Assembly (NCBI GenBank): GCA_026388115.1
Contig: JAPLKK010000030.1
Coordinates: forward strand, 73,160 to 111,253
Length of the DNA stretch: 38,094 nucleotides
Direction of reading: 5' to 3'
Source: Elusimicrobiota bacterium
GTDB lineage: Bacteria > Elusimicrobiota > Elusimicrobia > UBA1565 > JACRDR01
The notes beneath the pieces were generated by a model. That model had not been told where the DNA came from. It made no database searches and saw only the letters and a program-made list of their open reading frames with translations. This document shows, piece by piece, positions 1 through 38,094 of the stretch. The position numbers and the translations under genes were made by a program. Numbering within the stretch: the stretch's first letter is position 1; each line of letters begins with the position of its first letter.

Positions 1-2
1 AT

Positions 3-1859
3 CCCTGGCTGTACCCGCACGGTCCCCCGCCGAGCCCCGAGACGGGTGCGGCGGGCCGGCCCGAGACGGGCCGGCCCGCCGGGACGCCAAGCCCCTATGC
101 GGTGCAGGGGCAAAAAGCCTATTCCCGCGCCGTGCAGTCGGCCCCGGCGCTCAATCCGGCGAACGGCTCCCACCCGAGCGAGACTCCCCCTCCCGACGAC
201 GCGATCATCGGGGAGACGTCGATGCTCGGCGGCCCAGGCTCCGGGCCGGCGGGGATGAGCGCGGCGGAGGATCCGCCGTTCTCCGGCTCCGGCCCCGGCG
301 GCGCGACGGCGGGCGGCTCGGCGGCCGCGAGCGCAGGCGGCCTGTCGACGTTCCCAGGGAAAACGCCCGGCGGCGCGGCTACGGACGCGGGACCTCCGGG
401 CGCCGCGCCCGGAGCCCCGTCCCTGCTCAACGATGCGCGCACCAGCTTGAGGATCGGCGACTCGAAAGCCGCCATCGCGCTCCTGCGCCAGGCCGTCGCC
501 GCCCATCCGGCCGACGTCGAGGCGGCAGCGCTTCTGTCGATGGCCTACAGCCGCGCGCACGATCACCGCGCGGCCTTGGCCGCCGCCGACGCCGCGCTCA
601 AGCTCGCGCCCGACAGCGCGTCCTTGCTCGACGCCAGGGCGTACGCGCTCAACCGGCTGGGCGATTTCCGCGGCGCCCTGGCCGCCGCCGATCGAGCGGC
701 CGACTTGAGGCCGCGGGACGCGGTCGCGCAGTTCAACCGGGTCATCGCGCTCGCGGGCCTGGGAGACCGCTCCGGGGCGCTTGACGCCCTCAGAACCGCC
801 GCGATGCTTTCCCCGAAATTCGCTCCGTATCTGGAGAAGGCCCAGAAGGCGGGCGGCGAGGATCTCTCCTTCCTGTTCCAGAGCGAGGGGCAATCCTCCC
901 TGCTGGCGCTCTCGCGCTCGCTCGCGCCGCTTCCGCCGCAGCTGCCCTGGTGGGCCCTCGGCGCCGTCGCGGGCGGCGTCTGCGCGCTCGCCTTGCGGCT
1001 GCTCGCGCGCCGCCGGCGGCGATCGGCCTCCGCCGCGCCGGCGGCCAAGGCCCAACGGCTTGCCGGGCGTTACGAGCTCGGGCGGAGGATCGGCGAGGGC
1101 GGTATGGGCCTCGTGTATGAAGGCAAGGACCTCGTGCTCCGCAAGCGCGTCGCCATCAAGGGGATGCGCAGAGAGCTCCGCGCCGATGAGCGCCTGCGCC
1201 GCAGGTTCCTCGACGAGGCGCGGGTCGTGGCGAAGCTGCGCCACCCCCATATCGTCGACCTCGTCGAGATCGTCGAAGAAAAAGGGGAGGTGTACCTCGT
1301 CTTCGATTACGTCGCAGGCAGGACGCTGGAGCAATGGATCGCCGAGGGGAGGCTCCCGTTCGCGCAAGCGCGCGCGCTGTTCCGCCAGGCGGCATCGGCG
1401 TTGGATTACGCGCACGAGCGCGGGGTGATCCATCGCGACCTCAAGCCGTCGAACATCATGGTGGACGACAAAAGCCGGGCGTGGGTGATGGACTTCGGCA
1501 TCGCGCGCGTGCTGAAGGAGGCGGCGGGCCGGGGAGTGCCGAGGAGGCAGACTCTGGGCGCGGGCACCCCTCCCTACACGGCGCCCGAGCAGGAGCAGGG
1601 CAAGGCGTGCAGGGAATCGGATGTGTACTCGCTCGCGATCTGCCTCTATGAGGCCGTCACGGGCGAGCGGCCTTTCTTCGGCGTCGGCGCCGGCCTGCTG
1701 ATGAACAAGCTCAAGAAGGAGTACGCGCCCCCCTCGGCCGTCGCCACCGGACTGCCGCCGGGGCTCGACGCGGTCTTCGCGAGGGCTTTCGAGCCGGATC
1801 CCCAAAAGCGCTATCCGAGCGCGGGAGCGCTCGTGCGCGAGCTGGACGCGCTCTCATGA
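3..1859 (+). CDS. Receptor-type Ser/Thr protein kinase with TPRs (copy 1, 5' end outside window)
   Basis: The reading frame is open to the first base, and the first visible residues match the linker of the downstream paralogues (motif ARAVQ..PAL.PANG, then DAIIGE), so the signal peptide and Cys-rich head lie upstream. Next come about four TPR-like helix pairs (nt 424-830), one membrane segment from nt 948 (WWALGAVAGG) closed by a basic stop-transfer cluster, and a full kinase domain from nt 1071. All catalytic marks are present: glycine loop GEGGMG, lysine in VAIK (nt 1150-1161), HRDLKPSN (nt 1432 on), DFG and the TAPEQ substrate-binding loop. Known for the family: phosphorylation of Ser/Thr in the cytoplasm. 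Inferred: the TPR part is periplasmic and senses or binds partners, the reverse of PknB-type kinases with C-terminal ectodomains. The stop overlaps the start of the M50 gene (ATGA), so the two are translationally coupled. Confidence 0.9.
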   Translation, partial: PWLYPHGPPPSPETGAAGRPETGRPAGTPSPYAVQGQKAYSRAVQSAPALNPANGSHPSETPPPDDAIIGETSMLGGPGSGPAGMSAAEDPPFSGSGPGGATAGGSAAASAGGLSTFPGKTPGGAATDAGPPGAAPGAPSLLNDARTSLRIGDSKAAIALLRQAVAAHPADVEAAALLSMAYSRAHDHRAALAAADAALKLAPDSASLLDARAYALNRLGDFRGALAAADRAADLRPRDAVAQFNRVIALAGLGDRSGALDALRTAAMLSPKFAPYLEKAQKAGGEDLSFLFQSEGQSSLLALSRSLAPLPPQLPWWALGAVAGGVCALALRLLARRRRRSASAAPAAKAQRLAGRYELGRRIGEGGMGLVYEGKDLVLRKRVAIKGMRRELRADERLRRRFLDEARVVAKLRHPHIVDLVEIVEEKGEVYLVFDYVAGRTLEQWIAEGRLPFAQARALFRQAASALDYAHERGVIHRDLKPSNIMVDDKSRAWVMDFGIARVLKEAAGRGVPRRQTLGAGTPPYTAPEQEQGKACRESDVYSLAICLYEAVTGERPFFGVGAGLLMNKLKKEYAPPSAVATGLPPGLDAVFARAFEPDPQKRYPSAGALVRELDALS

Positions 1860-2521
1860 GGTGGGGACGGGCGTTCGTTCTGATCGCGTTGGTCACGCTG
1901 ACGTGGTTCACATGGCGGAGCAAAGCCGTCTATCCGGTCCGGATCTTCGTGACGTTCCTGCACGAGATGGGCCATGCGGCGGGCACCCTGGCCACGGGCG
2001 GCAAGGTCCTGCGGATCACCATCAGCCCCGACACGAGCGGAAAGTGCCTCAGGCAGGGAGGCTGGGACATCGTCGTCATCCCGGCGGGCTACCTCGGCTC
2101 GATGCTGTTCGGCACGTTGATCCTGCTCGCGGCGAGCCGCACGCGCTTTCGCAAAGCCACAAGCTTCCTTCTCGGCCTCGTTTTCTTGGCCTGCGTCACC
2201 TTCTATGTGCGCTCGATGTTCGATTTCTTCTTCGGCCTTGCCTGGGGCGTCGCGCTCGCCTCGGCGGGCTGGTGGCTGCCGGAGGATGCGAACGATCTGC
2301 TGTTGTCGTATCTGGGGACCGCGTCCTGCCTCTTCGCGGTATTCGACCTGCGAGACCTCTGGCGCCTCGGAAGCGCCGCCGACACGGACGCGGGTCATTT
2401 CAGCGATAAGATACTGCCTTTGCCGCCCCGAGTATGGGCGGCCCTGTGGGCCGCGGTCGCCGTCGTGTGGGCGCTCGCCGCCCTGCGCGCCGCAGTACGC
2501 TCAAGCCGTTCGAGTCGTTAG
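1856..2521 (+). CDS. M50B-like membrane metallopeptidase
   Basis: A 221-residue polytopic membrane protein. A first hydrophobic segment (about residues 5-20) is followed by FLHEMGHAAG, giving the zinc motif H36-E37-x-x-H40. Further hydrophobic segments lie near residues 70-90, 98-125, 145-165 and 195-212. A later FAVFDLRDL stretch resembles the part of M50-type proteases that supplies the third metal ligand. This layout fits the Peptidase M50B-like family, which is related to site-2 proteases. It overlaps the kinase gene upstream by four bases. Inference: it may cleave a membrane partner, possibly one of the neighbouring single-pass kinases, but nothing here shows the substrate. The C-terminus is a basic Ser/Arg tail. 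Confidence is high for the zinc-peptidase fold and low for the partner. Confidence 0.8.
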   Translation: MRWGRAFVLIALVTLTWFTWRSKAVYPVRIFVTFLHEMGHAAGTLATGGKVLRITISPDTSGKCLRQGGWDIVVIPAGYLGSMLFGTLILLAASRTRFRKATSFLLGLVFLACVTFYVRSMFDFFFGLAWGVALASAGWWLPEDANDLLLSYLGTASCLFAVFDLRDLWRLGSAADTDAGHFSDKILPLPPRVWAALWAAVAVVWALAALRAAVRSSRSSR

Positions 2522-2603
2522 ATGCTCCCGTTAGCAACCTTTAAGAGACGTTCTCGCCCCCCGGAAATTCCTTCTACTGCCAGGCTTTTTCGTCTTAAGA
2601 AGG

Positions 2604-2655
2604 AAGTTAGTGGCGGCGGAGTGCCTTTGGGCGCATACTATCACACGGTACCAGG
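2604..2655 (+). promoter_or_regulatory. Conserved upstream element of kinase copy 2
   Basis: The block AAGTTAGTGGC (2604-2614), seven variable bases, TGCC-TTTGG (2622-2630), GCGCATAC-TAT (2631-2641) and ACCAGG (2650-2655) recurs at the same spacing before kinase copy 4. It lies just before ATG 2659. A -10 could be TACTAT (2636-2641); no convincing -35 is seen. It is probably the shared promoter or operator of these receptor genes. Confidence 0.5.
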
Positions 2656-2658
2656 CCA

Positions 2659-5064
2659 ATGAGGACTAGATTCCTGATCCTTTCCGCAGTACTGTCGGCC
2701 GTTCCGTTCAAGTGCGAGGCTGCGTGCCTGCCGCCGCTGGTGGAGTGTAAGTTGCCGGGCGTTTGCGCCATCAAGGGTTGCTGCCCCGAGGATCAGCAGA
2801 AGGCGAACCAGGCCATCGGCGCCAAGTCCTCCATCATCAAGGGCGATGCGTGCAAGGGAGCGCTCGACGGAGTGGAGAAGGCGGTCCAGCAGGCGAGCCA
2901 GGGCGGCGGCGGGAGCCCTTCCGGCGGCTCTCCATCCAGCGGGAACGACTCCGGCGGCAGTACCCCCTCCTATGGCGACCAGGCCTACCCTTCGCAAGAC
3001 GCGAGCGGGCTCGTCCCGTCGCAGGACGCAAGCGGGGTCGTTCCCCCGAGCGGGGCGAACCCGGCGCAAGGCGGCGGCGGTGGCGGCCTCCCTTTGCAGA
3101 GCGGAACCGAAGCCGTCCCTTCACAGAGCGGAACTGAAACCGCCCCTTCGCTGGGCGGCAACGGTGCCGCCCCTTCCCAAGGCGGAACTGGAGCCGCCCC
3201 TTCACAGAGCGCAAACGGAGTCGCCCCCTCGCAAGGCGGCAGCAAGGATGGCCCTTGGCGCGGGTCTCAAGCAGGGGGAAACGGCGCCGCTCCCAACAGG
3301 TCGAAGCAGCCTGTTCAGGCGATGAGGAGCGGCAGGAGCTCGGCCCCGAACGTCGTCCGGCCGGCGTCCGGAGTTCCCTTCATCTCCCCCGCCCCTCCCG
3401 CCAATGCTGCGGCGACCTCCAACCAGAAGCCGGCCGTCATCGTCGCGCCCGGGGCCGGCGGCATGATGGCTCCCAGCGAATCCAGGGGTTTTCCTTCGCT
3501 CCGCACTCAGGCTGTCGCGCCGGAAGCGAGCCAACCGGAAGATGGCCCCGTCGTGAGGGGGCGGCCTCACCTGACCACGAGCGAAAACGCGGCGCAGGAT
3601 ATGACGGAACTGGAAAGCCCGGACGCCCGCGCCGCCCGAACGGCCTCGACGACTGATTTGGGCGACCTTCCCACTCTCAACGACGCCGTGATCGGAGAGA
3701 TGACGATGCCCGGCAGCCGCGCCGAAGTGGCCCCCGGCTCGCCCTTCGTTCCGGACGCGGACGTTTCCTTGACGGATCAGGCGCGCGCGAGCCTGAAGGC
3801 CGGCGACTCCAAGACCGCGATCCGTTTGCTGCGCCAAGTCCTGGCCGTGGATCCCGGCGACGCCGACGCGAGCGCGCTTCTCGCGACCGCCTACAACCGC
3901 GAGCACGACTACCGCGCCGCCCTGGCCGCCGCCAACGCCGGCCTCGGGGTCTCGCTGGACAACGTGCCCCTGCTCGACGCCAAGGCCTACGCGCTCAACC
4001 GCCTGAAGGACTTTCGGGGCGCCTTGGCCGCGGCCGATCGCGCGGCGGCGCTGAGGCCGCGCGACGCGCTCGCGCAGTTCAACCGTGCGATCGCGCTCGC
4101 GGGCCTGGGAGACCGCGTCGGGGCGCTCGAAGCCCTCAAGGCCGCCGCGAGCCTCTCCCCGACGTTCGTCCCGTACCTGGAAGCCGCCCGGACGACGCGC
4201 GGCGCGGACCTCAAGTTCCTGCTCGAGGACGACTACGATCTGGCCGGGCAAACGCCGCTTTCCCGGCGGGTGGGCTGGTGGATCCTCGGCGTCGTCGCGG
4301 CCGTCGGTTGCGCGCTGGCGACGCTCATCGTGCTCCGCTCGGAGGTCGGGACGGACGGCATGGGCGTCGTGCACGAAGGCATGGACACGGAGCTCGACCG
4401 GCGCGTCGTCATCAGGAGGATGCGCGAGGAGGTCTGCGCCGACGAGCGTGTGCGCCGCGGGTTCGTAAGCGAGGCGCGGGCCGCGGCGCAGCTGCGGCAC
4501 CCCCACATCGTCGAACTCCTGGAGATCGTCGAAGCCGAGGGCGAGGTCTATCTGGTCTTCGAGCACGTCGGCGGGCGGACGCTGGAGCAGCGGATCGCCG
4601 AGGGGAGGCTCCCCTTCGCCGAGGCGCGCGCCCTCTTCGTGCAGGCGGCGTCGGCCTTGGACTACGCGCACGCGCACGGCATCCTCCACCGCGGCCTCAG
4701 GCCCTCGAACATCATGGTGGACGAGGATGGCGTCGCCTGCTTGATGGATTTCGGCGTCACCGTCGCCGGCGCGCCGCCTTACCTGGCGCCGGAGCAAGAG
4801 CAGGGCAAGGCCCGCGCGGAATCCGACGTCTATGCTCTGGCCATCTGCCTCTACGAGGCTCTGACGGGCGAAAGGCCTTTCGACGGGATCGACGCCGGCC
4901 TCTCGATGAACAAGCTCAACAAGGCATACGCCCCCGCTTCCAAGGTCGCCAAGGGACTGCCGGCATACATCGACATCTTCTTCGCGAGGGCTTTCGAGCC
5001 CGATCCAACGAAACGCCATTCGACCGGGGGAGCTCTGATGAGCGAGTTGGAGGGGCTCAAATGA
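2659..5064 (+). CDS. Receptor-type pseudokinase with TPRs (copy 2)
   Basis: 801 residues. A signal peptide (residues 1-21, ending CEA) is followed by a Cys-rich head with KGCCPED, then a Ser/Gly/Pro-rich linker with imperfect PSQ-G repeats, the linker motifs QAMRSG..S.PN..RPAS and DAVIGEM, TPRs at about 370-515, a membrane segment at about 540-560 and a kinase-like domain to the end. The kinase core is degraded at every key site. The beta-3 lysine is Arg586 (VVIRRM instead of VAIKRM). The catalytic Asp of HRD is Gly679 (HRGLRPSN). The glycine loop reads GTDGMG. About 30 residues are missing between membrane and glycine loop, the activation segment is shortened, and its conserved Thr is Ala (AGAPPY). 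DFG and APEQ remain. With the frame intact over 801 codons, it is best read as a pseudokinase. The stop overlaps the ATG of copy 3 (ATGA). Confidence 0.9.
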   Translation: MRTRFLILSAVLSAVPFKCEAACLPPLVECKLPGVCAIKGCCPEDQQKANQAIGAKSSIIKGDACKGALDGVEKAVQQASQGGGGSPSGGSPSSGNDSGGSTPSYGDQAYPSQDASGLVPSQDASGVVPPSGANPAQGGGGGGLPLQSGTEAVPSQSGTETAPSLGGNGAAPSQGGTGAAPSQSANGVAPSQGGSKDGPWRGSQAGGNGAAPNRSKQPVQAMRSGRSSAPNVVRPASGVPFISPAPPANAAATSNQKPAVIVAPGAGGMMAPSESRGFPSLRTQAVAPEASQPEDGPVVRGRPHLTTSENAAQDMTELESPDARAARTASTTDLGDLPTLNDAVIGEMTMPGSRAEVAPGSPFVPDADVSLTDQARASLKAGDSKTAIRLLRQVLAVDPGDADASALLATAYNREHDYRAALAAANAGLGVSLDNVPLLDAKAYALNRLKDFRGALAAADRAAALRPRDALAQFNRAIALAGLGDRVGALEALKAAASLSPTFVPYLEAARTTRGADLKFLLEDDYDLAGQTPLSRRVGWWILGVVAAVGCALATLIVLRSEVGTDGMGVVHEGMDTELDRRVVIRRMREEVCADERVRRGFVSEARAAAQLRHPHIVELLEIVEAEGEVYLVFEHVGGRTLEQRIAEGRLPFAEARALFVQAASALDYAHAHGILHRGLRPSNIMVDEDGVACLMDFGVTVAGAPPYLAPEQEQGKARAESDVYALAICLYEALTGERPFDGIDAGLSMNKLNKAYAPASKVAKGLPAYIDIFFARAFEPDPTKRHSTGGALMSELEGLK
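2989..3243 (+). repeat. Imperfect Ser/Gly/Pro/Gln tandem repeats in the pseudokinase linker
   Basis: Units of about 9-10 codons of the form (A/V)PSQ-x-G-x-x-G repeat through the linker, for example QDASGLVPS, QDASGVVPP, GGNGAAPSQ and GGTGAAPSQ. They encode a low-complexity spacer between the Cys-rich head and the TPRs. The paralogues use different linker repeats at the same place. Confidence 0.7.
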
Positions 5065-7646
5065 AGGTCAGCTCCCTCGCCGCCGCCGCATTGCTGATGG
5101 CGGTTCCTTTTGAATGCGGGGCCGATATCTGCCCAGGGACTGAGATTGTCGTGCCGGACCTGGGTTGCTGTCCTGGGCATTCACAAGCTGCGAACGCGAT
5201 GTGCGGAGCCATCAAATGCAGCGCTTGCGGCGGCGACGTCGACTATAAGAAAGCCCTGCAGGACAAGGTTAATCAACTAAACGGCGGTCAGGGCGGCGGC
5301 AGAGGCGGCGGTGGCCGTGGAGGTGGCGGCCGGGGCGGCGGCAGAGGCGGTCGTGGCTGGCCGCACGAGGGGAACGATGGCCTTGGTGGACACGAGGGTC
5401 TTGGCGGGCACGACGGTCTTGGCGGACACGAGGGTCTTGGCGGGCACGAGGGTCTTGGCGGGCACGACGGTCTTGGCGGGCACGACGGTCTTGGCGGGCA
5501 CGAGGGTCTTGGCGGGCATGACGGCTTTGGCGGGCACGACGGTCTTGGCGGGCACGACGGCTTTGGCGGGCACGACGGCTTTGGCGGCCACCACGGCTTT
5601 GGCGGGCACGACGGCTTTGGCGGGGGCGGGGATGGTTTGGGGCATGGACTTCAGGGAGGAGGCGGGAACAGCGGCGTGTCCAACATCTTTGGCCAAAGCC
5701 CGGCGAACTTCACTCCGCTACAGCCCATTCAGGCAGTCAAAAGCGGCATAGGCTCGACCCCGAACCTTCTACGGCCGGCGTCCGAGGCTCCCTCCTCCGC
5801 CGCCCCCGCCGCCAGCCCCTCCCCCTCTTCTCAGAAGTCGGTCGTCGCCACCGATCCAGGAGGAAGCAACTTGGCGGCATCCAACGAGGCCAAAACTGGT
5901 CCTTCACCCCACGCTCAAGGTCACGGATCGGGCGTGGACCAACCCGAAGGCGGCCCCATCGATCTGAGCCAGCCTTCCGCGGCTTCGCGCCGCTATGGGG
6001 CGCAGTATGCGGCGCCGGAGCAGAACCCGAACGCCCGTGCCGTCCAAACGGGCCCGGCGCTCGATTCGTCAAACGGGACCCGCGCGGGCGCGCCTGCTTC
6101 GGTCAGCGACGCCGTTCTCGGAGAAATGATGACGCCAGGCACGCCCGGTGAAATGGCCCCCGGCGCGCCCTTGCTCGGAGCCGCGCCGGCGGCCGTCGCC
6201 GTCTTGAAAGACAAGGCGCGCGCCAGCTTGAAGACCGGCGACTCCAAGACCGCGCTCACATTGCTGCGCAAGGCCCTGGCCGCAAATCCCGACGATGCCG
6301 AAGCGGATTCGCTCCTTGCGATGGCTTACAGCCGCGAGCGCGACTACCGCGCCGCCGCGGCCACCGCCGACGCCGGCCTCAGGGTCTCGCCGGACAACGT
6401 GCCCCTGCTCGACGCCCAGGCCTATGCGTTCAACCGCCTGAAGGACTTTCGCCGCGCCCTGGCCGCGGCCGATCGCGCGGTGGCGCTGAAGCCCCACGAC
6501 GCGGTCGCGCATTTCAACCGGGCGGCGGCGCTCGCGGGCCTCGGAGACCGCGCCGGGGCGCTCGAGGCCCTCAGAGCCGCCGCGAGCCTCTCTCCGAGAT
6601 TCGCTCCCTTCCTGAAGGCGGCCCAGAACCGCAAGGATCTTTCGTTCTTGTACGAGGACGACGAGGATCTGCCGATGGCAGGGCGGCTGTTCCGGCAGAC
6701 GCGTTGGTGGCTCCTCGGCACCCTCCTGGGCGGGGCCTGCGCGCTGCCCCTGTTCCTCTTGCGCCGCGCGCGCCGGCGGAGGACCGTCGCCGCGCCGGAC
6801 GCCCGGCGCCCCGCGCCCTGCCTCCTCGCCGAGCATTACGAGCTCGGGCCCGCGCTTGGCGAGGGCGGCATGGGCGTCGTGTACGAAGGCACGGACGTCG
6901 TGCTCAACCGGCGCGTCGCCATCAAGAGGATGCGCGAGGAGATCCGCGCCGACGAGCGCGAGCGCCGCAGGTTCCTCAGCGAGGCGCGGGCCGTGGCGAA
7001 GCTGCGGCACCCGCATATCGTCGATATCCTGGAGATCATCGAGGACGGGGGCGAGGTCTACCTGGTCTTCGAGTATGTCGCCGGACGGACGCTGGAGCAA
7101 CGGATCGCCGAGGGAAGGCTCCCCTTCGCCGAGGCGCGTGCCCTCTTCCAGCAGGTGGGCTCGGCCTTGGACTACGCGCACGCGCACGGGGTGATCCACC
7201 GCGACCTGAAGCCCTCGAACATCATGACGGACGAGGAAGGCCTCGCGCGCGTGATGGATTTCGGCGTCGCGCGGATCCTTGACGAGGTGGCGAGCACCCG
7301 CGGCGTGAGCAGGGGGAGCACGATCGCCGGCACGCCGCCCTACATGGCGCCGGAACAAGAACAGGGCAGGGCGTGCAGGGAATCCGACGTGTATGCTCTA
7401 GCCATCTGCCTCTACGAGGCTCTGACAGGCGAAAGGCCTTTCGGCGGCCTCGACGCCAGCCTCTTGATGAGCAAGCTCAGCAAGACGTACGCGCCCGCTT
7501 CTGAGGTCGCCGCGGGGCTGCCGCAAGGACTCGACGCCGTTTTCGCGCGGGCTTTCGAGCCGGACCCCACGAAACGGTATCCCAGCGCGAGGGAGCTGGT
7601 ACGCGAGCTGGACACGCTGGCGTGCGCGTCCGAATCCACTCAGTAG
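5061..7646 (+). CDS. Receptor-type Ser/Thr protein kinase with Gly-His repeat ectodomain (copy 3)
   Basis: ATG 5061 is chosen because it overlaps the previous stop and opens a signal peptide (residues 1-21, ending ECGA); 861 residues result. The head is Cys-rich (LGCCPGH, then C-x(4)-C-x(2)-C). It is followed by a Gly/Arg stretch, 13 units of GGH(D/E/H)G(L/F), a linker with motifs shared with copy 2 (QAVKSG..S.PN..RPAS) and with copies 1, 2 and 4 (DAVLGEM), and TPRs. A membrane segment starts near residue 549 ([10 protein letters not shown]) and is closed by an Arg cluster. The kinase (about 593-850) has an intact glycine loop GEGGMG, Lys622 (VAIKRM), Asp715 (HRDLKPSN), DFG and APEQ. It should be an active cytoplasmic kinase with a periplasmic sensor part. 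It is co-transcribed with the pseudokinase, an arrangement that would suit an active/inactive pair; that pairing is inference. Confidence 0.9.
5385..5618 (+). repeat. 13 tandem 18-bp units encoding GGH(D/E)G(L/F)
   Basis: Thirteen uninterrupted 18-bp units encode hexapeptides [18 protein letters not shown] or GGHHGF. There is one His per unit, two in unit 12. The acidic/His pattern could bind divalent metal. The near-identical units also make copy number prone to change by slippage or to collapse in assembly. Confidence 0.9.
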
Positions 7647-7712
7647 CCGTTCAGAGAACACTGAGCCTCTGGAAAAAGCTTTTTATTTCCTACCTCTTTT
7701 GTGCTGAAAATA

Positions 7713-7760
7713 AAGTTAGTGGCCATCCCATGCCGTTTGGACGCATACCTATAGTGCCAG
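7713..7760 (+). promoter_or_regulatory. Conserved upstream element of kinase copy 4
   Basis: Same block as at 2604-2655: AAGTTAGTGGC (7713-7723), seven variable bases, TGCCGTTTGG (7731-7740), ACGCATACCTAT (7741-7752) and GCCAGG (7756-7761). It differs from the first copy mainly by single-base indels. A TATAGT or CATACCTAT stretch could serve as the -10. Confidence 0.5.
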
Positions 7761-7769
7761 GATAGCCCA

Positions 7770-10271
7770 ACGAAAACCGGATCCTTCGTCATTGTCTCAT
7801 TACTGATCGCGCTTCCCCTCGAATGCGCAGCGTATCAGTGCGAAGACGGGTCGCACGCGCCGATTCCGGATTGCTGCCCTTCGCACCATAGGCATACGCC
7901 GTTCGGCTCCACCTGCGCAAACGGCGTCGATAAGAGCGCCGTGGACAAAGCCGTGGATGACCAGTTCGATCAGGCGGAGGGGAACCCTGCCGACACCGGC
8001 GCTGACGGAACCCCGACCGACGGCGCTGGGACCGGCCCGACAGACGGCGCCGGCATCGGGGGCGGCCCGGCCGACGGCGCCGGCGCGGGGATCGGCCAAG
8101 CCGTCGGCGCCGGCGGCAGCGCGCTCTCGAGCTTCGGCACTCCCTCCGGGAGCGGCGGCGCGGGCCAATACTCCGGCGGCCAGGGCGGCCCGTACACCGG
8201 CGGCGGCAACGCTCTCCCCCCGAGCGGCGGGAGCCCCCACCCCAATCCCAGCGCGCCCCAGAACACGGACGCCCACCCCACTACGCACACCTACGGGTCG
8301 GGGAACGAAGTCATCACCGCGAGACCCGCTGCCGCGGCTCCCCAACCGTCCAAACAGGCGCCCAGCGAGGCAGCGCACCCAAGCTCCAGCAGTCAGCATC
8401 CGACGGCCCAGGCTTCTCCCTCGTATGCCCCCCCCTCCAACGCCGCCCCTTATAGCGCCCCGGCATCTCCAAGCGACGCTGTCGTCTTCAGGTCCGCGGC
8501 GAGCAGCGGGCTGTCTTCCGGCGGATTCAAGTCTTCTTCTTTTGCCAGTTCCCGCGGTTCCGCGTTGGCCGCCGGCCGACCCCAAGGCGGCCCGGCGGAG
8601 GCATTTCGGCCTCTCGTGACCCAGCGCCAACCCGCCGAACGGGAGGCGGTGCAGGAGCAGACGGCATACGCCCGCGCCATCCAGTCCTCCCCGGCAGTCG
8701 ATCCGGCGAATGGCGCCCGCCAGAGCGGGCTTCCCCGTCCCGAAGACGCCGCCGTTGGAGAAATGTCTCGACTCCGCGCCTTTGGCCCGACCTCCGGCGG
8801 CGAGAGCGCGTTGGCGAGTCCATCGATGGCGGTTCCCTCCTTGACGGATAGAGCGCGCACAAGCTTCACGAGCGGCGGCTCCAGGACCACGATATCCCTG
8901 CTGCAGCGAGCCGTGGCCGACCATCCCGCGGATGCCGACACGACCTCGCTTCTCGCGCTGGCTTACAGCCGCGAGCGCGATTTCCGCGCCGCCGAGGCCA
9001 CCGCCGACGCCGGCCTCAAGGCCTCGCCGGACAGCGTGCCCTTGCTCGACGCCAAGGCGCTCGCGCTCAACCGCCTGAGGGAGTACCGCGACGCCCTGGT
9101 CGTGGCCGATCGCGCGGTGGCGCTGGATCCGCGCGACGCGATCGCGCATTTCTACCGGGCGATGGCGCTCGCGGGCCTTGGAGACCGCACCGGAACGGTC
9201 GCGGCCCTCAAAGCCGCCGCGAGCCTCTCCCCTATATTCGGCCCGTATCTGGAGGCCGCCCGGAGGGCGCTCGGCAACGATCTCAGGTTCCTGTTCGAGG
9301 ACAACGAGGATCTGGAACTGCCGCCTTCCCGGCCTTGGCGGGCCCTCGGCGCCGCCGCGGGCGGCGTCTGCGCGCTGGCCCTGCTGCTCCTCGCACGCCG
9401 CGCGCGCAGGCGGCCGGCCGTCGCCGCGGCGGCCGCGGAGCGCCCGGCGCCCAAGCCGCTCGCCGGGCATTACGAGCTGGGGCGCGAGATCGGCGCGGGA
9501 GGCATGGGCATCGTGTACGAAGGCATGGACCTCGTGCTCCACCGGCGCGTCGCCATCAAGAGGATGCGCGAGGAGATCCGCGCCGACGAGCGCGAGCGCA
9601 GCCGATTCGTCAGGGAGGCGCGGGCCGTGGCGAAGCTGCGGCACCCGCATATCGTCGATATCATCGAGATCATCGAAGAGGAGGGCGAGGTGTACCTGGT
9701 CTTCGAGTACGTCGCCGGGCGGACGCTGGAGCAATGGATCGCCGAGGAGAAGCTCTCCTTCGCCGAGGCGCGCGCCCTGTTCGGGCAGGCGGCGGCGGCC
9801 TTGGATTACGCTCACGCGCACGGCATTATCCACCGCGACCTCAAGCCCTCGAACGTCATGGTGGACGCGGAGGGCCGCGCGCGCCTCTTGGATTTCGGCG
9901 TCGCGCGAGTCGTGGACAAGGCGGCGAGCGCCCGCTGGAAGACCGGGCGGCACACCGTCGCCGGCACCCCGCCCTACATGGCGCCGGAGCAGGAGAATGG
10001 CGAGGCCTGCAAAGAATCCGACGTGTATGCGCTGGCCGTCTGCCTCTACGAGGCTCTCACGGGCGAAAGGCCTTTCGGCGGCATCGGCTCCGGCCTTTCC
10101 ATGAACAAGCTCAACAAGGAATACGCGCCCGCCTCCGGCGTCGCCACGGGGCTGCCGGCGGGCCTCGACGCCGTCTTCGCGAGGGCTTTCGAGCCCGCTC
10201 CCGCGAAGCGCACTCCGAGCGCGGGGGCGCTGACGCGCGAGCTGGACGCGCTGGGCGAGCCGGTGTCCTAG
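7770..10271 (+). CDS. Receptor-type Ser/Thr protein kinase with apparent ACG start (copy 4)
   Basis: The frame is open from just after a stop at 7752-7754. Translation from 7770 gives a signal peptide aligned to copy 2 (KTGSFVIVSLLIALPLECAA), a head with PDCCPSH, a Gly/Ala/Pro linker, the motifs ARAIQ and DAAVGEM, TPRs, a membrane segment near nt 9331-9400 and an intact kinase (VAIKRM Lys at 9558-9560, HRDLKPSN Asp at 9837-9839, LDFG, APEQ). The codon aligned to ATG of copy 2 is ACG (7770-7772), with AGGA seven bases upstream. The first ATG, GTG or TTG in frame is GTG 7941, which would remove the signal peptide and Cys-rich head. Either ACG is used, the start has been lost, or the base call is wrong. 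From ACG the protein is 833 residues. The stop shares CTAG with the converging gene on the other strand. Confidence 0.8.
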   Translation, partial: TKTGSFVIVSLLIALPLECAAYQCEDGSHAPIPDCCPSHHRHTPFGSTCANGVDKSAVDKAVDDQFDQAEGNPADTGADGTPTDGAGTGPTDGAGIGGGPADGAGAGIGQAVGAGGSALSSFGTPSGSGGAGQYSGGQGGPYTGGGNALPPSGGSPHPNPSAPQNTDAHPTTHTYGSGNEVITARPAAAAPQPSKQAPSEAAHPSSSSQHPTAQASPSYAPPSNAAPYSAPASPSDAVVFRSAASSGLSSGGFKSSSFASSRGSALAAGRPQGGPAEAFRPLVTQRQPAEREAVQEQTAYARAIQSSPAVDPANGARQSGLPRPEDAAVGEMSRLRAFGPTSGGESALASPSMAVPSLTDRARTSFTSGGSRTTISLLQRAVADHPADADTTSLLALAYSRERDFRAAEATADAGLKASPDSVPLLDAKALALNRLREYRDALVVADRAVALDPRDAIAHFYRAMALAGLGDRTGTVAALKAAASLSPIFGPYLEAARRALGNDLRFLFEDNEDLELPPSRPWRALGAAAGGVCALALLLLARRARRRPAVAAAAAERPAPKPLAGHYELGREIGAGGMGIVYEGMDLVLHRRVAIKRMREEIRADERERSRFVREARAVAKLRHPHIVDIIEIIEEEGEVYLVFEYVAGRTLEQWIAEEKLSFAEARALFGQAAAALDYAHAHGIIHRDLKPSNVMVDAEGRARLLDFGVARVVDKAASARWKTGRHTVAGTPPYMAPEQENGEACKESDVYALAVCLYEALTGERPFGGIGSGLSMNKLNKEYAPASGVATGLPAGLDAVFARAFEPAPAKRTPSAGALTRELDALGEPVS

Positions 10272-36008: not shown

Positions 36009-38094
36009 ATGGAGTTCGCCTCCCGGACGCTGCGCTTGCTTTGCGCCCTCCTGGTCCTCGCCGGACAAGTCCAGGCGGCGACGTTCACGGTCGATCTCCT
36101 GGGACCTGGGCTCGGGCGGCGTGATCGGTCTGACCAGCGTCGCCCTGCCCGTCGGCGCGAACACGACGCTGGACATGACGAACGCGCCCTCGGCTCCGAC
36201 CATCACGGGTCCACAAGCCGTCTCTTTGGGCGGCGCCGTGACCTTCGGCAATAGCAACACGGCCCAGACGGCGGTCGTCTCCGCCGTCGTCAGCGGGGCC
36301 GGCTCCCTGACCAAGGCCGGCGCCGGAGAGCTCGACCTGACCGGCGTCAACACCTACCTGGGCGGGACCCGGCTCAACGGCGGCGTGGTGAACATCAACA
36401 GCGACTCGAGCCTGGGCGCTGCCGCCGGCGCCCTGACGTTCGCCGGCGGCACGCTGCAGCTCAAGCTCGCCACGCCCGTCTCCTCCGCCCGCGACATCTC
36501 GCTGGCCGGCAACGGGACGTTCGATACGAACGGGAACGCCTCGACGCTTTCCGGAATCATCAGCGGCCCTGGCTCATTCACCAAAGGCGGGGCGGGCACG
36601 CTCACCCTCTCCCCTTCCGCGGCGAACACCTACACCGGCGGGACGATCATCAACTCGGGCACCCTAAGCATCGGCGACGATTCGTATCTGGGCTCCGGCG
36701 GCGCCGTGACCCTCAATGGCGGCTCGCTCGAGGCGACCAATACGATCATCTCAGCGCGGACCTTCACGATGAGCGGCACCGGGACGATCGACACGCAGAC
36801 CTTCGGCGTGACGCTGGGCGGCCTCGTCAACGGGGGCGGCGTCCTGACCAAAGAAGGGACGGGCACGCTGACGCTGACCGGCACGTCCAACAGCTACGGC
36901 GGGATCATCGTCGACAAGGGCATCCTGAACGTGAACTCCGACGAGGCGCTGGGCTCCTCGGTGACGCTCAACGGCACGACCCTTCAGACCGACACGGCGA
37001 CGCCGGGCAGCGGCGCGGGGATCACCACCGCCCACCCGATCACGCTGAGCGGCGGCGGGACTATCGATACGCTCGGCAACAGCTCGACTTTCTCCGGCGT
37101 CATCAGCGGCAACGGCGGGCTCAACGTCAGGGGGGACGACCGTCAACATCGGGAGCATCCTGAACATCACGGCGGATTCGGCCCTCGGCGACGCGTCGGG
37201 CGGGCTGACCCTGAACGGAGCCACGCTCCAGGCGGGCGGCAACATCACCTCGGCGCGCGCCATAGCGATCAGCGGGGCCAGCAAGTTCGATTCGAACGGC
37301 CACGACTCGACGCTTTCCGGCGTCATTAGCGATGGATCGAGCAGCGGGAGTCTCGAGAAGTTCGGCTTGGGCACCTTGACCCTTTCCGCCTTGAACACAT
37401 ACACCGGCGCGACCCTGGTCAGTTCGGGGACCCTTCGACTGGGAGCCCAGCCGAGCCCCTCCGGCTCGTTGCCCGCCGGCACGGTGCTGACGGTGTCTCC
37501 TCTCGGCACGTTCGACCTGCAGGACTTCAGGCAGAGCGTAGCGAGCTACAGCGGCGGCGGGACGCTGGCGATGCGGCTGCAAGCCGCTCAAAAGCAGACA
37601 GCCGGCGCAGGTCTTCCCGGCACCCCAAGCCTGACGGTCACCGGCGGCGCCAACATGATCGGCACGACCTTGAACGTGACCCTCGCGCCGCAGGTCATCA
37701 AGACCGGCGATTACTTCACGCCGATCAAGTACGGGTCGCAACTGGGAACCGCGTCCCAGCTGACGGTCAATTCCCCCGCCGCGATCCAGTTCACGCCGGA
37801 CTATACCAGCAACGGCGGATACCTGACGCTCACGGCATCCCTCGTGCCGTTCGCCGACAGCGCGCTCAACAGCAACCAAACGGCAATCGGCAACGCGCTC
37901 GAGCCCTTGCGCGCCAACCCGACGGGTGACGCGGTCGCGGTAATCGGGACCCTATACACGCTCAACGCCACGGAACTGCGCGCTGCGCTGGACCAGATCG
38001 GCCCCGTCAGCCTCGGCGCGATGAGCTCCCTGGGCGCGGCCGAAGCGGGCGTGCAGTCGACCGCGGTGAGCCAGCGCATGAGCGCGCTCGCGCA
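36009..38094 (+). CDS. Autotransporter with PATR-type passenger, two apparent +1 shifts, 3' end outside window
   Basis: ATG 36009 opens a signal peptide (MEFASRTLRLLCALLVLAGQ, cleavage after VQAA). The passenger continues in the next frame from about 36100 (WDLGSGG) and changes frame again at the G6 tract 37130-37135, each consistent with one extra base. It holds about five passenger repeats of the form GTLTL..NTYTGGT.I..GTL.I, for example GAGTLTLSPSAANTYTGG and GLGTLTLSALNTYTGA. From about 37850 the pre-barrel helix region appears (LYTLNATELRAALDQIGP), and the frame is open to the window end, where the beta-barrel should begin. Role: a surface-exposed or secreted beta-helix, adhesin-like. 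The shifts could be decay, phase variation or base-call errors. Confidence 0.75.

What the first reader, a model, noticed from the sequence alone, without database searches (positions are those of the whole stretch)
1..10271. Tandem family of inverted-topology receptor kinases with a Cys-rich CCP head and TPR ectodomain
Four consecutive paralogues combine a signal peptide, a head with a CCP motif, fast-changing low-complexity linkers, TPRs, one membrane segment and a C-terminal kinase. Known bacterial receptor kinases of the PknB type have the kinase first and the ectodomain last. Kinase and TPR parts are very similar while heads and linkers diverge, as expected if different signals feed a shared cytoplasmic output. 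I do not recognise the CCP head as a described domain.
Basis: partly seen in the sequence, partly recalled or inferred. Interest (0 to 1): 0.75.

Follow-up and report, generated by a model that had tools for sequence, protein, structure and literature searches.

The report
Head-swapped receptor kinases in Elusimicrobiota
A bacterium of the phylum Elusimicrobiota carries a tandem set of membrane receptor kinases, three of which wear a small cysteine-rich outer "head" that also occurs on about eleven other predicted secreted proteins of the same genome, most of them under the same promoter-like DNA element, so the kinases may watch over, or dock with, the cell's own secreted proteins.

Summary
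Tandem receptor kinases: confirmed; "four with CCP heads": not. Copy 1 starts just after a 20-N assembly gap; its head lies upstream of the gap and is an unrelated head shared with kinases of relatives. CCP heads are on copies 2-4. Copy 2 is a predicted pseudokinase (Lys and HRD-Asp lost). Copy 4 has ACG where ATG is expected. C-terminal kinases behind a signal peptide, TPRs and one membrane helix are not unusual here: the family is in 56 of 57 close genomes and, with the same layout, in the apparent Elusimicrobium minutum genome. CHASE2 kinases also put the ectodomain first.

New: the CCP head matches no Pfam, NCBIfam or PDB family and was found only in this genome, in 14 proteins: 3 kinases and 11 other predicted secreted proteins (one endolysin-like). 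Eleven of the 14 genes have an upstream element TTAGTGGC-N17-19-GCATAY, some degenerate; exact genome hits are 9 against 0 for the reversed control, two before amidase and lipase genes. Kinase heads match non-kinase heads better than, or as well as, sister kinases' heads, although TPR and kinase parts are 59-75% identical: mosaic receptors. Sensing of secreted CCP proteins or their target is inferred, not shown.

The parts
3..1859 (+). Copy 1 (5' part missing): linker, TPRs (420-about 870), TM (948-1010), kinase (1059-1859). Its real N-terminus lies upstream of the window beyond a 20-N gap and has a non-CCP head
1856..2521 (+). M50B-type membrane peptidase gene, overlaps copy 1's stop by ATGA; not found next to the G024/G025 orthologues
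   Evidence: Pfam PF13398 E 1.3e-41; absent from L092/L093
2607..2638 (+). Upstream element TTAGTGGC-N11-TTTGGGCGCATAC of copy 2, 20 nt before the ATG
2659..5064 (+). Copy 2: full-length CCP-headed receptor, predicted pseudokinase (VAIK Lys to Arg, HRD Asp to Gly, Gly-rich loop truncated, activation loop shortened)
2659..2721 (+). Copy 2 signal peptide MRTRFLILSAVLSAVPFKCEA
   Evidence: hydropathy
2722..2904 (+). Copy 2 CCP head, 6 Cys
3766..4332 (+). Copy 2 TPR repeats and membrane helix (about 4267-4332)
5061..7646 (+). Copy 3: complete receptor kinase; start codon overlaps the stop of copy 2 (ATGA)
5124..5285 (+). Copy 3 CCP head, 6 Cys
5370..5624 (+). Copy 3 linker: 14 tandem copies of an 18-bp unit encoding GGHDGL-type repeats
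6201..6824 (+). Copy 3 four TPRs (6201-6650; AlphaFold pLDDT above 90) and membrane helix (6705-6764)
6825..7646 (+). Copy 3 kinase domain with VAIK, HRD, DFG intact
   Evidence: Pfam PF00069 E 3.9e-50, alignment
7716..7748 (+). Upstream element TTAGTGGC-N12-TTTGGACGCATAC of copy 4, 21 nt before the ACG
7770..10271 (+). Copy 4: receptor kinase with signal peptide (7770-7832), CCP head (7833-7973, 4 Cys), linker, TPR/TM (8838-9458), kinase (9459-10271). No canonical start codon before the signal peptide; ACG at 7770

Best explanation
These are type-I-topology receptor Ser/Thr kinases: exported head, linker and four TPRs outside, one membrane helix, Hanks-type kinase inside. Copy 1 is the ancestral gene, orthologous to one kinase of relatives. 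Copies 2-4 are lineage-specific tandem duplicates whose 5' ends (signal peptide and disulfide-rich CCP head, and for copies 2 and 4 also the upstream element) belong to a module shared with about eleven other predicted secreted proteins of the same genome. Inferred: the shared head lets the receptors bind, or sit on the same surface as, the co-produced secreted CCP proteins, so that the kinases report their presence or target to the cytoplasm; copy 2, apparently catalytically dead and translationally coupled to active copy 3, acts as a regulatory partner or decoy. Shown by sequence: architecture, head sharing, shared upstream element, mosaic relationship, loss of catalytic residues. Inferred: topology, disulfides, ligand, direction of module transfer, promoter function, pseudokinase role.
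For: Pkinase and TPR hits; TPR model confident, pLDDT above 90 over residues 1-150; hydropathy with Arg-rich end after the TM in copies 1, 3, 4. The four copies form one clade (100/100), sister to the G024/G025 genes. Copy 1's head is kinase-associated in relatives and occurs once in this genome. The CCP profile finds 14 places in the own genome (E 2e-24 to 2e-4) and none below 0.05 in 56 relatives. All 14 heads have an even number of Cys, 4 to 10. Exact upstream element: 9 hits in 4.15 Mb, 0 for the reversed control; 11 of 14 CCP genes have it, some with 1-3 mismatches; the other two exact hits precede Amidase_2 (E 2e-19) and Lipase_3 (E 1e-6) genes. One CCP protein ends in an endolysin-like domain (PHROG 873, E 1e-27). 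Best head partners: copy 2 with C257 (62%, E 9e-30), copy 3 with C152 (2e-12), copy 4 with C251c (2e-11), against copy 4-copy 3 0.002 and copy 4-copy 2 0.24-0.3.
Against: No ligand, phosphorylation or localisation data. The head has no confident structure (pLDDT 50). For copy 3 the identities to secreted heads (43%) and to copy 2 (40%) are nearly equal, so the swap is clear only for copies 2 and 4, on segments of only 45-60 residues. C257 runs off its contig and may itself be a kinase, so copy 2's best partner may not be a non-kinase. C257 and C152 lack the element, and copy 3 has none of its own. Copy 4's missing start codon and copy 2's dead catalytic site could mean decay rather than function. 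Signal peptides and TM were judged from hydropathy only. The head and element were seen in one genome only, a 286-contig assembly.
Confidence: 0.55

Rival explanations
1. The CCP head is a cell-wall or surface-binding module (PASTA-like in function). Kinases with it sense the state of the wall, and secreted enzymes use it to reach the wall; there is no direct kinase-secreted protein contact.
For: A CCP head is fused to an endolysin-like domain; the same upstream element precedes a secreted amidase gene.
Against: No similarity to any known wall-binding domain; most CCP proteins have low-complexity or unassigned C-termini.
Confidence: 0.25
2. 5' capture only: duplicated kinases picked up promoter, signal peptide and head of a secreted gene. 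The gain was expression, and the head has no sensing role.
For: Element, signal peptide and head are shared together for copies 2 and 4; heads diverge freely.
Against: The Cys number stays even in all 14 heads, and heads match different partners, which suggests maintained folding and more than one event.
Confidence: 0.2
3. A decaying tandem array: copy 2 is a degenerating kinase, copy 4 has lost its start codon, and only copies 1 and 3 work.
For: Copy 2 has HRG and VVIR; copy 4 has ACG at the start position.
Against: All four frames are open over more than 600 codons; copy 2 keeps 67-72% kinase identity to its sisters and an intact upstream element.
Confidence: 0.2

Closest known systems
PknB/Stk1-type PASTA receptor kinases
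   Same: Hanks-type kinase, single membrane helix, extracytoplasmic sensor; kinase domain matches NF033483
   Different: Reverse domain order, no PASTA repeats, match far below the family cut-off (278 against 450 bits)
CHASE2 Ser/Thr kinases (PMC2176072)
   Same: N-terminal extracytoplasmic sensor, C-terminal kinase
   Different: CHASE2 with three membrane helices instead of head, TPRs and one helix; no CHASE2 hit in the Pfam scan
Order-wide Elusimicrobiota SP-TPR-TM-kinase family (this work; apparent E. minutum homologue L150)
   Same: Same layout; copy 1 is the orthologue of the G024/G025 genes
   Different: Copies 2-4 carry the CCP head, found in no other genome searched, and two of them the shared upstream element
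Sushi/CCP (complement control protein) domain
   Same: Only the three letters CCP
   Different: No Pfam hit at E up to 10; the motif here is Cys-Cys-Pro

Membership tests
Hanks-type Ser/Thr protein kinase | Pkinase domain over the curated cut-off | tested here: met
   116-173 bits against 31.7 in all four copies
Hanks-type Ser/Thr protein kinase | Catalytic Lys, HRD Asp, DFG | tested here: met
   Copies 1, 3, 4 keep all three
Active kinase (copy 2) | Catalytic Lys and HRD Asp | tested here: not met
   VVIR and HRG in copy 2
PknB/PASTA receptor kinase | Kinase N-terminal, PASTA ectodomain C-terminal | tested here: not met
   Kinase is C-terminal, no PASTA hit; NF033483 278 against 450 bits
CHASE2 kinase | CHASE2 domain | tested here: not met
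   No CHASE2 hit
TPR protein | TPR helical repeats | tested here: met
   Pfam TPR hits over cut-off, AlphaFold helical hairpins pLDDT above 90, PDB TPR sequence matches
Sushi/CCP domain PF00084 | Pfam match | tested here: not met
   No family at E up to 10 for the heads
Elusimicrobiota SP-TPR-TM-kinase family | Same layout and common ancestry | tested here: met
   Profile hits in 56 of 57 genomes, tree, apparent E. minutum homologue
Elusimicrobiota SP-TPR-TM-kinase family | Extracytoplasmic TPRs | not testable with these tools
   Only hydropathy and positive-inside pattern; needs reporter fusions

The most novel reading that the evidence does not exclude
A head-sharing ligand-receptor network in a bacterium: secreted CCP proteins and CCP-headed receptor kinases, expressed from the same class of promoter, recognise each other through the common disulfide head, with a pseudokinase co-receptor made together with an active kinase.
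Probability: 0.2. Interest if true: 0.8.

Novelty: new variant of a known kind. Interest (0 to 1): 0.5.

Why it matters
Little is known about what bacterial Ser/Thr receptor kinases sense. Here the sequence itself points to candidates: other predicted secreted proteins of the same genome that carry the same head and, mostly, the same upstream element. It also shows receptor evolution by head swapping on a conserved TPR-kinase chassis in a phylum whose signalling is little described.

Tried and rejected
Head against Pfam, NCBIfam and PDB sequences: nothing. AlphaFold of the head: not confident. The M50B neighbour as a conserved partner protease: rejected, absent from the G024/G025 loci. The upstream element as a folded RNA leader: no more stable than shuffles for the two window copies. 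The element in relatives: two hits, at chance level given five reversed-control hits. Head search in relatives: nothing convincing. Regex census of catalytic motifs over all held family ORFs was too noisy to use. Naming the genus through genome contigs failed, with one distant hit; the phylum rests on G090 having the size of the E. minutum genome, 1,643,562 bp. Plasmid search: the ten matches listed cover only the kinase domain. Two literature searches for earlier descriptions of TPR-ectodomain kinases found nothing relevant.

Full report
Setting. The window is C64:73160-111253 of a 4.15 Mb, 286-contig genome. A genome of the same class has exactly the size of Elusimicrobium minutum, 1,643,562 bp (size in PMC2613244), so the phylum is taken to be Elusimicrobiota; this is an inference from size.

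The genes. Copies 1-4 occupy 3-1859, 2659-5064, 5061-7646 and about 7770-10271 on the + strand. Pfam finds TPRs and a C-terminal Pkinase domain in each, and an M50B peptidase between copies 1 and 2. One hydrophobic segment precedes the kinase and, except in copy 2, is followed by an Arg-rich stretch, consistent with a cytoplasmic kinase; copies 2-4 begin with a signal-peptide-like segment. AlphaFold gives the TPR block with pLDDT above 90. Copy 1 to M50B and copy 2 to copy 3 overlap by ATGA.

Corrections to the finding. The window starts right after a 20-N gap. The open frame before the gap encodes a signal peptide and a head 41% identical over about 200 residues to the N-termini of the G025/G024 kinases. 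That head is found in seven of 57 genomes, mostly in kinase-length frames, and once in this genome. Copy 1 therefore has no CCP head, as far as the two pieces either side of the gap belong to one gene. Copy 2 has VVIR and HRG in place of VAIK and HRD, and a shortened activation segment: a predicted pseudokinase. Copy 4 has ACG at the position of the start codon, 21 nt after the shared element as in its relatives.

The family. A profile of TPR-TM-kinase finds the family in 56 of 57 close genomes, with 1-27 matches at E 1e-60 each, and in 166 of 295 genomes of the phylum; outside the order part of these matches cover mainly the kinase. The apparent E. minutum protein has a signal-peptide-like segment, TPR-like repeats, one TM and a C-terminal kinase. 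Copies 1-4 form one clade (100/100), sister to the G024/G025 genes. Tandem arrays also occur in relatives.

The CCP head. No Pfam match at E up to 10, none in NCBIfam over this stretch among the families shown, and no credible PDB sequence match. An eight-sequence profile finds 14 places in this genome and nothing convincing in 56 relatives: the three kinases and eleven other proteins with signal-peptide-like N-termini, one of them cut by a contig end (C257). Ten of these were scanned against Pfam, none over a cut-off (the third C251 member was not scanned). One (C261) has an endolysin-like C-terminus (PHROG 873, E 1e-27). All 14 heads have an even number of Cys, consistent with disulfides.

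The shared upstream element. Five strict hits in the genome, all before CCP genes, and nine with a relaxed exact pattern against none for the reversed control. By gene, 11 of 14 CCP genes have it, some with 1-3 mismatches, in most about 20 nt before the start. Two exact hits precede an Amidase_2 and a Lipase_3 gene. Copy 3 is probably read from copy 2's element; C257 and C152 lack it. The element is absent from relatives above chance. It looks like a promoter, but that is inferred.

Mosaic structure. Kinase parts are 67-75% and TPRs 59-72% identical, heads 26-39%. Copy 2's head is closest to C257 (62%), copy 4's to C251c (E 2e-11, against 0.002 and 0.24 for its sister kinases), copy 3's to C152 by BLAST score and about equally to C251c and copy 2 by identity. 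So heads appear to have been exchanged with other CCP genes, most clearly for copy 4 and copy 2, less clearly for copy 3. The direction of exchange is not established.

How it most likely works. Exported head and TPRs meet a partner, the kinase signals inside; the shared head and element suggest that the partner is, or lies with, the secreted CCP proteins. Copy 2 may regulate copy 3. None of this was tested. Known comparisons: PASTA kinases have the opposite order; CHASE2 kinases have the same order with another ectodomain (PMC2176072).

Verdict. Real, partly misdescribed, a new variant of a known kind; the head-sharing network is the interesting part.

Noticed in passing
window 1856-2521: M50B-type membrane peptidase gene between copies 1 and 2, overlapping copy 1's stop; absent from the loci of the G024/G025 orthologues.
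   Followed up: partly
L031 17142-17161: 20-N assembly gap directly upstream of the window that cuts copy 1.
   Followed up: yes
L129 (C251:26000-36000) and L101 (C251:56000-63000): Two clusters on contig C251 with six CCP-head genes; the first also holds a secreted Amidase_2 gene behind the same upstream element, next to a divergent response-regulator gene.
   Followed up: partly
L031 8812-12511: Another signal-peptide/TM/C-terminal kinase gene followed by a response-regulator-like and a histidine-kinase-like frame.
   Followed up: no
L039 18-2225: Repeat-containing, TM protein with a kinase-like C-terminus lacking HRD and DFG: possible second pseudokinase of the genome.
   Followed up: no
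L035 6313-8283: TPR-TM protein of the same general layout that ends after the membrane segment, without a kinase.
   Followed up: no
L036 2616-4955: Kinase with several N-terminal membrane segments that looks like a CHASE2 kinase (by eye, not scanned).
   Followed up: no
window 36121-38092: Gly-rich repeat frames that look like an autotransporter passenger (by eye).
   Followed up: no
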